From: Actinomycetes bacterium
GTDB taxonomy: Bacteria > Actinomycetota > Thermoleophilia > Solirubrobacterales > Solirubrobacteraceae
DNA: 35,582 nucleotides
NCBI GenBank assembly: GCA_021846845.1
Contig: JAJZWB010000026.1
Coordinates: 1 to 35,582, forward strand
Direction of reading: 5' to 3'
A program made the translations under genes and the position numbers. Shown here piece by piece: positions 23,572 to 27,407 of the stretch. Positions within the stretch are counted from its first letter, which is position 1; each line of letters opens with the position of its first letter. The notes beneath the pieces are model-generated. The model made no database searches. It was not told where the DNA came from and worked only from the letters and a program-made list of their open reading frames with translations.

Positions 23572-24675
23572 CTACAGCTCGATCACGCTCCGGATGCCGT
23601 CCTGGTTCTCCATCAGCTCGAAGCCCCGGTTGACGTCGTCGAGGCCGATCCGGTGCGAGATGAATGCGTCGACGTCGAGCCTGCCGTCCAGGTAGAGCCC
23701 GACGAGCTCGGGCACCTGGTCGCGGCCCTTGACGCCGCCGAAGGAGGAGCCGCAGATCCGGCGGCCGGTGATCAGCCAGCGCGGGATCACGTCGAGCGTC
23801 TCTCCGCGTCCCGCCACGCCCGCGATCGTGCACAGCCCCCAGCCCATCCGCGCCGCCTCGACCGCCTGGCGCATCACCGCGACCAGCCCGGTGGCCTCGA
23901 ACGTGTAGTCGGCGCCGAAGCCGCCGGTCTCCTCGATCACGCGCGCGACAGTGTGCTCGTCGGCGATCCAGGTCTCGGTCGCGCCCTGTCCACGCGCCAG
24001 CTCGAGCCGGTCGGGCGAGAGGTCGACGCAGATCACGCGCTCGGCGCCGCTGAGCCGGCAGCCGGCGACCGCGCCGAGGCCGACCATCCCGGCGCCGAAC
24101 ACGACGCAGGTGCTTCCCGGCCTGACCCTGGCCGTGTTGAGCGCCGCGCCCAGGCCGGTCGACAGGCCGCAGGCGAACAGGCAGGCGCGGTCCGGCGGCG
24201 TCTCACGCGGGACCTTGGCGAGCGCGATCTCCGGCATCACCGTGTACTCCGCGAACGTGCTGCACCCCATGAAGTGGCGGATCGGCTCGCCGTCTCGTGA
24301 CAGGCGCGCGGTCCCGTCGGGCAGGTAGCCCAGGTTCTGCTGCTCGCGGATCGCCAGGCAGAGGTTGGTCTCGGTGCTCTGGCAGTGGATGCACTCCCGG
24401 CACTGGGGCGAGAACAGCGTCACCACCAGGTCGCCTGGCGCCACGCTCGTCACGCCCTCGCCGACGCGCTCCACGAACCCGGCTCCCTCGTGCCCGAGGA
24501 CGGTCGGCGCGTAGCCGGTGGGATCCGCGCCCGAGGCCGTGTACATGTCGGTGTGGCAGACCCCGCACGCGGCCAGGCGCACCAGCACCTCGCCGGCCCG
24601 CGGCTCGGCGAGATCCAGCTCGGTCACGTTCAGCGGCTTGCCGAACTCCTCCAGCACTGCGGCGCGGATCTTCAA
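23572..24675 (-). CDS. Zn-dependent alcohol dehydrogenase, class III / formaldehyde-dehydrogenase-like
   Basis: TTG start with AAAGGAG 6 nt upstream; LKIRAAVLEEFGKPLNVTELDL, GVCHTDMYTASGADPTGYAPTVLGHEGAG, SPQCRECIHCQSTETNLCLAIR. Track ORF start (25308) is spurious. Confidence 0.88.
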   Translation of the reverse strand: MKIRAAVLEEFGKPLNVTELDLAEPRAGEVLVRLAACGVCHTDMYTASGADPTGYAPTVLGHEGAGFVERVGEGVTSVAPGDLVVTLFSPQCRECIHCQSTETNLCLAIREQQNLGYLPDGTARLSRDGEPIRHFMGCSTFAEYTVMPEIALAKVPRETPPDRACLFACGLSTGLGAALNTARVRPGSTCVVFGAGMVGLGAVAGCRLSGAERVICVDLSPDRLELARGQGATETWIADEHTVARVIEETGGFGADYTFEATGLVAVMRQAVEAARMGWGLCTIAGVAGRGETLDVIPRWLITGRRICGSSFGGVKGRDQVPELVGLYLDGRLDVDAFISHRIGLDDVNRGFELMENQDGIRSVIEL

Positions 24676-24746: not shown

Positions 24747-25340
24747 TCAGCCGCCGGGCGCGCCGCCGCGTCGGCGATCGAGCGCGTCGATCATCAGCGC
24801 CAGCATCCGCCGCCAGTGGTCGGGCTCGGCCCGGCGCGCGGCGCGGGTCGCGATCAGCAGCAGGCGAAGGTCGACGGCCGTCGCATCGGGACGCAGCCGG
24901 CCCTCGTCCCTGGCGGCCGCCACGAGCCGCTCGAGCGCGTCGGCCATGCGCGCTCGAGCCTCGATCACGTCCGGATGGTCGGCTACCTGGTGCTTGGCCT
25001 CCCCCAGGAAGTCGGTCGCCGACTGCTGCTCGGCGAGCGTCTCCAGCATTCCCCGCAGAGCCGTCCAGCGGTCGCCCGCGTGCTCCAGCGCACTCTCCGC
25101 GGCCGCCGCGATCTGGTCGCGGCGCTGCGCCAGGAGCGCCGCCAGAAGCTCCTCCTTGGAGGCGAACACCCGGTACACGCTCGCCACGCCCGCGCCCGCC
25201 GCCTGCGCGACCTCGGCCATCGTCGCCTCCAGGCCATCGCGGGTGAACACCTCCGCTGCGACCGCCAGCAGGCGCTCGCGTTTGGCGGCCCGGTCCAGCG
25301 AGGTCCACGAGAGGTCCTCCGTCTCAGGCGGAATCTTCAT
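24747..25340 (-). CDS. TetR-family regulator
   Basis: MKIPPETEDLSWTSLDRAAKRERLLAVAAEVFTRDGLEATMAEVAQAAGAGVASVYRVFASKEELLAALL. Confidence 0.93.
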   Translation of the reverse strand: MKIPPETEDLSWTSLDRAAKRERLLAVAAEVFTRDGLEATMAEVAQAAGAGVASVYRVFASKEELLAALLAQRRDQIAAAAESALEHAGDRWTALRGMLETLAEQQSATDFLGEAKHQVADHPDVIEARARMADALERLVAAARDEGRLRPDATAVDLRLLLIATRAARRAEPDHWRRMLALMIDALDRRRGGAPGG

Positions 25341-25345
25341 TCCGC
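25328..25345. promoter_or_regulatory. Perfect palindromic candidate TetR operator GCGGAAT-CTTC-ATTCCGC
   Basis: 7-bp perfect arms, 4-bp spacer; covers the tetR start codon (25338-25340). Confidence 0.65.
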
Positions 25346-25352
25346 TAGAGTA
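25346..25352. promoter_or_regulatory. Overlapping opposed -10 elements (TAGAGT on +, TACTCT on -)
   Basis: + TAGAGT 25346-25351, 7 nt, GTG 25359; - TACTCT 25352-25347, 6 nt, ATG 25340. Confidence 0.55.
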
Positions 25353-25358
25353 GCCGAG

Positions 25359-27407
25359 GTGTCCTCGGACGTCGCCAGGATCAGCGTGTCCAGCGCGGAC
25401 CGCGGTCCGCGCTACAAGTGGATAGCTCTCTCCAACTGCACGCTCGGCGTGCTGCTGGCGACGCTCGACGCGTCGATCACGCTGATCGCGATGCCGGACA
25501 TCTTCCGCGGCATCCACCTGGACCCGCTGATCCCCTCCAACAGCTTCTACCTGCTGTGGATGATCCTCGGCTTCCTGGTCGTCTCCAGCGTGCTGATCGT
25601 GTCGCTCGGCAGGCTCGGCGACATGTACGGGCGGGTGCGGATCTACAACCTCGGCTTCGTGATCTACACGGCGGCCTCGCTGCTGCTCACGGTCGACTGG
25701 CTGACCGGCCGGGAGGGAGCGATGTACCTGATCGTCCTGCGGGTCGTGCAGGGGATCGGCGCCGCCTGCCTGCTGGCCAACTCGGCCGCGATCATCACCG
25801 ACGCCTTCCCGGCCCATCAGCGCGGGATGGCGCTCGGCATCAACAACATCGTCGGGGTCAGCGGGATGTTCGTCGGGCTCGTGCTGGGCGGCGTGCTGGC
25901 GCCGGTCAGCTGGCGGCTCGTGTTCCTGATCTCCGTGCCCGTCGGCCTGTTCGGCACGGTCTGGGCCTACCTGAAGCTTAAGGAGATCTCGACGCCGCAC
26001 CGGGCTCGTATCGACTGGGCGGGCAACCTCACGTTCGCGCTCGGCCTGATCCTGATCATGGTCGCGGTCACCTACGGGATCCGCCCCTATGGCTCCTCGG
26101 CCACAGGTTGGGGCAGCCCGATCGCGCTCGGCCTGATCGCCGGCGGCGTCGCGTCGCTGGTCGCCTTCGCCCTGATCGAGCGCCGGGTCGAGGACCCGAT
26201 GTTCCGCCTGTCGCTGTTCCGGATCCGCGCCTTCACGTTCGGGACACTGTCGACGTTCCTGTCCGCCATCGCGCGCGGCGGGCTGATGTTCATGCTGATC
26301 ATCTGGTTGCAGGGGATCTGGCTGCCCCAGCACGGGTTCGACTTCACCCAGACGCCGCTCTGGGCAGGCATCTACATGCTGCCGCTCACGGTCGGGATGC
26401 TGGTCGCGGGGCCGACCTCGGGCTACCTCTCCGACCACTTCGGCTCGCGCCCGTTCGCGACAGGGGGGATGATCGGCGCCGCCGTCAGCTTCGTGCTGCT
26501 GTCGCTGCTGCCCACCAACTTCTCCTACCCGCTGTTCGCGCTCGCGCTGCTGCTGAGCGGGATCTCGATGGGCCTGTTCGCCTCGCCCAACCGCGCCGGC
26601 GTGATGAACAGCCTGCCAGCCAGCCACCGCGGCGCCGGCGGGGGGATGAACCAGACCTTCCAGAACTCCGCCCAGGTCCTCTCGATCGGCGTCTTCTTCA
26701 CGCTGATGATCCTCGGCCTCTCCGCCTCCCTGCCGCAGGCCATGTACGCGGGCCTGACGTCGCACGGCGTGCCGGGCGCGCTCGCCACTCGGGTCGCGCA
26801 CCTGCCGCCCGTCTCGATCCTGTTCGCCGCGTTCCTGGGCTACAACCCGATCGCGCACCTGGTCGGCGCTCACACGCTGGCCACCCTGACCTCCGGACAG
26901 CGCACGGCGCTCGTCGGCCGCGCGTTCTTCCCGCACCTGATCTCGGCCCCGTTCCGCAGCGGCCTGCACGAGGCGTTCGCGTTCGCGGTCGGAGCCTGCC
27001 TGGTGGCCGCGCTCGCGTCCTGGTCCCGCGGCGGCCGGGCCGCGGGCGTGCCGGCGACCGGCGGGGGAGCGCAGCCTGCGACCGGAGGGGGAGCGCAGCC
27101 GGCGACCGGCGGGGGAGCGCAGCCTGCGACCGGCGGGGGAGCGCAGCCTGCGACCGGAGGGGGAGCGCGTCCTGCGACCGGAGGGGGAGCGCGTCCTGCG
27201 ACCGGAGGGGGAGCCGCGGTTCCCGCGCCCGCAGCTCCCGGGCCGGTCGCGGGACCGGGGGTGGCTGCGCCCGACATGGTGCAGAGCGTCCGTGGGCCGG
27301 TCTCAGGGACGGGCGTACCCGTGCCCGACGGCGCTCCCGGCGCGCAGGACGGATGGCGGACGGATGGCGCGCAGGAGCGCACGGCGCGCGCGCGCAAAGC
27401 CCGGTGA
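25359..27407 (+). CDS. MFS drug-efflux transporter (DHA2/EmrB-QacA-like) with repetitive C-terminal tail
   Basis: KWIALSNCTLGVLLATLDASITLIAMPDIFRGI; LGRLGDMYGRVRIYNLGF; many TM segments; low-complexity C-tail. Confidence 0.9.
   Translation: MSSDVARISVSSADRGPRYKWIALSNCTLGVLLATLDASITLIAMPDIFRGIHLDPLIPSNSFYLLWMILGFLVVSSVLIVSLGRLGDMYGRVRIYNLGFVIYTAASLLLTVDWLTGREGAMYLIVLRVVQGIGAACLLANSAAIITDAFPAHQRGMALGINNIVGVSGMFVGLVLGGVLAPVSWRLVFLISVPVGLFGTVWAYLKLKEISTPHRARIDWAGNLTFALGLILIMVAVTYGIRPYGSSATGWGSPIALGLIAGGVASLVAFALIERRVEDPMFRLSLFRIRAFTFGTLSTFLSAIARGGLMFMLIIWLQGIWLPQHGFDFTQTPLWAGIYMLPLTVGMLVAGPTSGYLSDHFGSRPFATGGMIGAAVSFVLLSLLPTNFSYPLFALALLLSGISMGLFASPNRAGVMNSLPASHRGAGGGMNQTFQNSAQVLSIGVFFTLMILGLSASLPQAMYAGLTSHGVPGALATRVAHLPPVSILFAAFLGYNPIAHLVGAHTLATLTSGQRTALVGRAFFPHLISAPFRSGLHEAFAFAVGACLVAALASWSRGGRAAGVPATGGGAQPATGGGAQPATGGGAQPATGGGAQPATGGGARPATGGGARPATGGGAAVPAPAAPGPVAGPGVAAPDMVQSVRGPVSGTGVPVPDGAPGAQDGWRTDGAQERTARARKAR
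27051..27218 (+). repeat. 24-bp tandem repeat x7 encoding PATGGGA[Q/R]
   Basis: c(c/t)(g)gcgaccgg(c/a)gggggagcgc(ag/gt) at exact 24-bp period; last copy degenerate. Confidence 0.92.

What the first reader, a model, noticed from the sequence alone, without database searches (positions are those of the whole stretch)
25328..25360. Ultra-compact divergent tetR/MFS switch: 18-bp intergenic region, overlapping opposed -10s, operator palindrome over the tetR start codon
Seen directly: tetR ATG (-, 25340) and MFS GTG (+, 25359) are 18 bp apart. TAGAGT (+) and TACTCT (-) overlap at 25346-25352, each 6-7 nt from its start codon, so both genes look leaderless. GCGGAAT-CTTC-ATTCCGC (25328-25345) is a perfect palindrome containing the tetR ATG. 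Established knowledge: TetR repressors bind such palindromes and often autoregulate, and symmetric -10 sequences can fire both ways. Inference: one operator could block both transcripts by covering their 5' ends, with operator sequence doubling as the first TetR codons (MKIP).
Basis: partly seen in the sequence, partly recalled or inferred. Interest (0 to 1): 0.72.

Follow-up and report, generated by a model that had tools for sequence, protein, structure and literature searches.

The report
TetR operator built into start codon
In a group of soil actinobacteria, the presumed DNA switch that silences a repressor gene and its divergent neighbour is written into the repressor's own first four codons, next to one shared promoter box; it is conserved over many genomes while the neighbouring gene has been exchanged (drug-type exporters, an amino-acid synthesis enzyme, a stress protein).

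Summary
The palindrome alone is at chance level in this 72% GC window (15 such 7-4-7 palindromes; 6-15 in shuffles), so the verdict rests on comparison. CGGAATnnnnATTCCG-n-TAnnnTA occurs in 30 of 232 genomes of the order, once in each, with no reversed-motif control hits. In 30 of 30 it sits on the ATG of a TetR gene starting M-x-I-P. In TetR relatives found by protein search alone, Ile-3 is always ATT (14/14), although ATT is 3% of their other Ile codons; 11 of 40 have a second copy upstream. The -10 is symmetric (TAnnnTA) and both genes look leaderless. The partner differs between genomes: another MFS, ilvD, Usp, or the window's MFS. A relative with tetR-mfsB-mfsA suggests that the window arose by loss of mfsB; 27/27 bases of operator and promoter are identical. 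Binding, start sites and repression are not shown. Closest known case: E. coli PacrA/acrR. New are the operator-in-start-codon layout, its conservation in a TetR clade and the partner exchange.

The parts
24747..25340 (-). tetR: TetR-family regulator, 197 aa, starts MKIP
   Evidence: PF00440 45.2 bits and PF21597 (SbtR-like C-terminal) 34.6 bits, both above cut-off; closest solved relative 5OVY = MAB_4384, E 1e-25
25359..27407 (+). mfsA: MFS exporter (DHA2-like), GTG start, predicted leaderless
   Evidence: PF07690 129.7 bits; EmrB/DHA2 model TIGR00711 E 7e-45 but below its curated cut-off; TANNNT 7 nt before GTG as in orthologues
25328..25345 (.). operator palindrome GCGGAAT-CTTC-ATTCCGC covering tetR codons 1-4
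   Evidence: one copy in the genome, other 2-mismatch sites are weak
25346..25352 (.). symmetric -10 element TAGAGTA: TAGAGT (+) for mfsA, TACTCT (-) for tetR
   Evidence: TAnnnTA in 17 of 22 relatives found without using the pattern
25338..25340 (-). tetR ATG, inside the operator; predicted transcription start at its A (25340)
   Evidence: TACTCT then lies at -12 to -7
25359..25361 (+). mfsA GTG; predicted transcription start at 25358 or 25359
25364..25377 (+). CTCGGACGTCGCCA: 14-nt match to the 3' end of mfsB of a relative, in the same reading frame (SDVA), probable deletion scar
   Evidence: matches L035 2914-2927 at the mfsB 3' end; E 0.012 in that comparison
23572..24675 (-). zinc-type alcohol dehydrogenase gene, conserved neighbour (TTG start)
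   Evidence: PF08240 and PF00107; 93% identical next to tetR in L173, 83% next to mfsA in L038

Best explanation
A self-contained divergent switch. One symmetric -10 (TAGAGTA) fires both ways and starts tetR at the A of its ATG and mfsA at or next to its GTG, so both mRNAs are leaderless. The TetR dimer binds GCGGAAT-CTTC-ATTCCGC, which spans about -5 to +13 of the tetR transcript and -31 to -14 of the mfsA transcript. One bound dimer therefore covers the tetR start site and the spacer of the mfsA promoter and shuts both genes; a ligand, probably a substrate of the exporter, releases it. Because the operator lies in codons 1-4, TetR is held to M-x-I/V-P with rare ATT/GTT codons. The operator + promoter module is inherited with TetR while the driven gene changes. 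In the window, mfsA came under it when the original partner mfsB was deleted. Shown: sequence, conservation, codon bias, partner change, synteny. Inferred: binding, start sites, repression, ligand, the deletion event.
For: Pattern operator + TAnnnTA in 30/232 genomes of the order, one each, 0 controls; 30/30 on a TetR ATG with MxIP; with the arms relaxed, 41 of 42 hits still read CATTCCG. 22 TetRs found by protein search alone: most arm bases 86-91% conserved, Ile-3 ATT 14/14 against 7/229 elsewhere, Val-3 GTT 5/6 against 13/516; in five window genes 120 ATC and 0 ATT. Second copies in 11/40, mostly 34-37 bp away, 0 control. The related TetR clade of 7 rows lacks the motif. TANNNT peaks 6-8 nt before mfsA starts (38 of about 79 matches). 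Most ilvD partners start 17-18 bp from the tetR start. ADH-tetR-mfsB-mfsA in L173/L035, 27/27 identical operator + promoter, mfsB scar. Tree: window TetR (mfsA) is sister to L006 (mfsB) at 100/100. E. coli AcrR represses both directions of its shared -10 promoter (PMC12825309).
Against: No binding, start-site or expression data. No -35 match on either strand. Alternative mfsA start GTG 25386 with AGGA upstream. L007, the only other tetR-mfsA pair, starts mfsA 72 bp or more away, so leaderless mfsA is not universal in this clade. The deletion scar is only 14 nt. Three clade members (L012, L021, L028) lack the operator at the start codon, although L012 has a copy 65 bp upstream.
Confidence: 0.85

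Rival explanations
1. The palindrome only autoregulates tetR; mfsA is transcribed from its own promoter and is not controlled by TetR.
For: mfsA orthologues elsewhere are leaderless without this TetR, and some lie next to a MarR gene; the mfsA partnership is recent and rare.
Against: The operator fills -31 to -14 of the only mfsA promoter visible, the -10 is shared, and 27/27 bases are kept from the mfsB-bearing relative.
Confidence: 0.09
2. CGGAATG...CATTCCG is an RNA hairpin or a translation-start signal of tetR mRNA, not an operator.
For: It covers the start codon and is fixed in position relative to it.
Against: In a leaderless transcript the upstream arm is not transcribed; arms are conserved by sequence rather than by compensating changes; second copies lie away from the tetR start codon.
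Confidence: 0.03
3. A chance palindrome next to ordinary leaderless promoters.
For: Alone it is at chance level in this GC-rich window.
Against: Conservation in 30 genomes with 0 control hits, codon bias at synonymous sites, second copies.
Confidence: 0.01

Closest known systems
E. coli PacrA/acrR bidirectional promoter with AcrR (PMC12825309)
   Same: TetR-family autorepressor divergent to an efflux gene; shared -10 hexamer read on both strands; the repressor shuts both RNAs
   Different: That promoter has -35 elements that matter in both directions, whereas no -35 match is seen here; here both genes are predicted leaderless and the operator contains the regulator's start codon and codons 1-4
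Bidirectional promoters with start sites about 18 bp apart (Warman et al. 2021, described in PMC10268837)
   Same: Near-symmetric -10; predicted start sites 18-19 bp apart here
   Different: Here both transcripts would be mRNAs beginning at start codons; start sites are predicted, not mapped
TA-led leaderless genes of Actinobacteria (PMC3160421)
   Same: TANNNT about 12 bp before the start codon (12 and 13 bp to the first T)
   Different: Two such genes share one TANNNTA in opposite directions
MAB_4384 / mmpS5-mmpL5 of Mycobacterium abscessus (5OVY, PMC5895659)
   Same: Closest solved TetR relative of this protein; represses a divergent efflux pump through a palindrome
   Different: Palindrome is 27 bp within a 208-bp intergenic region; the efflux pump is of another family

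Membership tests
TetR family of regulators | N-terminal TetR helix-turn-helix domain | tested here: met
   PF00440 45.2 bits, cut-off 24
TetR family of regulators | C-terminal ligand/dimer domain of a known TetR type | tested here: met
   PF21597 SbtR-like C-terminal, 34.6 bits, cut-off 27
TetR family of regulators | Binds a palindromic operator at its own gene | not testable with these tools
   Conserved palindrome at the start codon; binding needs EMSA or footprint
Bidirectional promoter (shared -10) | -10 sequences overlapping on opposite strands | tested here: met
   TAGAGTA 25346-25352; TAnnnTA in 17/22
Bidirectional promoter (shared -10) | Divergent transcription start sites 7-25 bp apart | not testable with these tools
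   Predicted 18-19 bp from spacing; no RNA data
TA-led leaderless gene | TANNNT about 12 bp before the start codon | tested here: met
   Both genes; peak at 6-8 nt spacing in mfsA orthologues
EmrB/DHA2 efflux MFS (TIGR00711) | Score above the curated cut-off | tested here: not met
   153.7 bits against 230.2; MFS_1 itself is met
Known named TetR equivalogs (NCBIfam) | Score above the cut-off of any named regulator | tested here: not met
   Best 41.2 bits against 330 for FasR

The most novel reading that the evidence does not exclude
A TetR clade so far found in one order (Solirubrobacterales) uses a portable operator/start-codon/-10 module of about 25 bp in which the palindrome supplies an ATG on each strand. 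The repressor's start, and in some genomes possibly the partner's start too (MSIP..., MPIP..., MTIP... in L162, L152, L148), lie inside operator copies, so DNA recognition dictates the N-termini of the proteins it controls. The module is re-used for unrelated genes (exporters, ilvD, Usp) by partner exchange.
Probability: 0.4. Interest if true: 0.65.

Novelty: new variant of a known kind. Interest (0 to 1): 0.52.

Why it matters
It is a minimal complete genetic switch: about 25 bp hold the operator, a two-way promoter, one start codon and four codons. Conservation across partner exchange gives a natural set of comparisons for testing how one repressor controls two leaderless genes through one -10, and shows an operator constraining a protein's N-terminus at synonymous sites. 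It also gives a predicted operator for an uncharacterised TetR clade, including members next to ilvD (branched-chain amino acid synthesis).

Tried and rejected
Chance palindrome: at chance level alone but rejected by conservation. RNA hairpin or start-context signal: rejected, see rivals. Wider regulon: rejected for this genome, one exact site and only weak 2-mismatch sites. Spread beyond the order: no hit outside it in 396 genomes of the phylum or 299 of the class. Motif general to TetR/MFS pairs: the related TetR clade of 7 rows lacks it. Alternative mfsA start GTG 25386: less likely, no TANNNT at 6-8 nt. In-frame partner ATG in second operators: seen in L162, L152, L148, not in L155 or L170, so not claimed as a rule. 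Literature searches for TetR operators over start codons or TetR/ilvD pairs gave nothing relevant in the open-licence library. Structure prediction was not used.

Full report
What is there. tetR (24747-25340, minus) and an MFS exporter gene, here mfsA (25359-27407, plus), face away from each other with 18 bp between their start codons. GCGGAAT-CTTC-ATTCCGC (25328-25345) covers tetR codons 1-4. TAGAGTA (25346-25352) reads as TAGAGT on the plus strand and TACTCT on the minus strand. The TetR protein has both a TetR helix-turn-helix domain and an SbtR-like C-terminal domain; the exporter matches MFS_1.

Is it more than chance? The palindrome alone is not: the window holds 15 perfect 7-4-7 palindromes, shuffles 6-15. 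The decision comes from relatives. The pattern CGGAATNNNNATTCCGNTANNNTA occurs in 30 of 232 genomes of the order, exactly once in each, with no hit for the reversed control; base composition predicts 0.01 hits in all 232 together. Nothing in the pattern demands a gene, yet all 30 lie with CAT in the same place as the ATG of a TetR-family gene starting M-x-I-P. When the inner bases are freed, 41 of 42 hits still read CATTCCG. The motif was not found outside the order in 396 genomes of the phylum or 299 of the class.

A sample not chosen by the pattern. TetR relatives were found by protein search and their start regions read. In 22 non-redundant members of the clade most palindrome arm bases are 86-91% conserved and TAnnnTA is present in 17. 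Codon 3 is ATT in 14 and GTT in 5; elsewhere in the genes of the clade ATT is 7 of 229 Ile codons and GTT 13 of 516 Val codons. Five genes of the window use 120 ATC, 1 ATA and 0 ATT outside the operator. The DNA, not only the protein, is therefore under selection. In 11 of 40 clade members a second copy lies upstream, mostly 34-37 bp away, with 0 control hits; L012, which lacks the copy at the start codon, has one 65 bp upstream. A related TetR clade of 7 rows lacks the motif.

Both genes leaderless. TANNNT about 12 bp before the start codon marks leaderless genes in Actinobacteria (PMC3160421). tetR has it at 12 bp and mfsA at 13 bp, to the first T. Over 66 mfsA loci TANNNT peaks 6-8 nt before an in-frame start (38 of about 79 matches), which favours GTG 25359 over GTG 25386. 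Most ilvD partners of the same module start 17-18 bp from the tetR start. Two start sites 18 bp apart are the commonest geometry of bidirectional promoters with a shared -10 (PMC10268837, PMC12825309). The 18-bp gap is thus simply the distance at which two leaderless genes share one -10 (inference).

The partner changes. The same TetR clade stands next to another MFS (mfsB), ilvD (15 rows, one clade), Usp, or mfsA. In L173/L035 the order is ADH-tetR-mfsB-mfsA; the window has ADH-tetR-mfsA; L038 has ADH-mfsA with TAGAGTAGCCGGAATG at the exporter start. The window and L035 share 27 of 27 bases over operator and promoter although the TetR proteins are 72% identical, and 14 bases of the mfsB 3' end are found in frame just after the mfsA start of the window. 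The simplest reading is that mfsB was deleted and mfsA became the partner (inference; the scar is short). Elsewhere mfsA lies next to MarR-family genes (L040, L043), so the exporter also changes its regulator.

How it most likely works. The operator spans about -5 to +13 of the tetR transcript and -31 to -14 of the mfsA transcript. A TetR dimer there would cover the tetR start site and the spacer of the mfsA promoter and stop both. This is the logic shown for AcrR at PacrA/acrR in E. coli, where AcrR represses both RNAs of a shared -10 promoter (PMC12825309). Not shown here: binding, start sites, repression, ligand. No -35 match was found.

Place among known things. The parts are known kinds: TetR repressor, leaderless genes, bidirectional promoter. 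The combination, in which the operator is the start region of the repressor gene, is held by selection at synonymous sites and is kept while the partner is exchanged, was not found described in the open-licence library, which does not hold most subscription papers. I rate it a new variant of a known kind.

Noticed in passing
25392-25413: Perfect 22-bp palindrome AGCGCGGACCGCGGTCCGCGCT inside the mfsA coding region (codons 12-19), not present at that place in the mfsA orthologues examined.
   Followed up: partly
27050-27214: 24-bp unit repeated 6.9 times (94% matches) in the 3' part of the mfsA ORF (repeats of ATGGGAQP).
   Followed up: no
L138:1501-3023 and 14 further loci: The same operator/TetR module faces ilvD (dihydroxy-acid dehydratase), usually with 17-18 bp between the start codons; an uncharacterised TetR-ilvD pairing.
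   Followed up: partly
L040:2506-2990, L043:2544-3020: mfsA orthologues are divergent to MarR-family genes, with an AACAGTTTACCTGT-like sequence just before the leaderless -10: possibly a second compact switch for the same exporter.
   Followed up: partly
L127 (start region of mfsA): In the other tetR-mfsA pair, a GTG shortly after TAGAGT opens a short ORF whose TGA overlaps the mfsA ATG (TGATG): possible leader peptide with coupled translation.
   Followed up: no
L150:1501-1516, L159:1501-1516, L160:1501-1516: CGGAATGnnCATTCCG without TAnnnTA and not over a TetR start; about 3 such hits are expected by chance in 232 genomes.
   Followed up: partly
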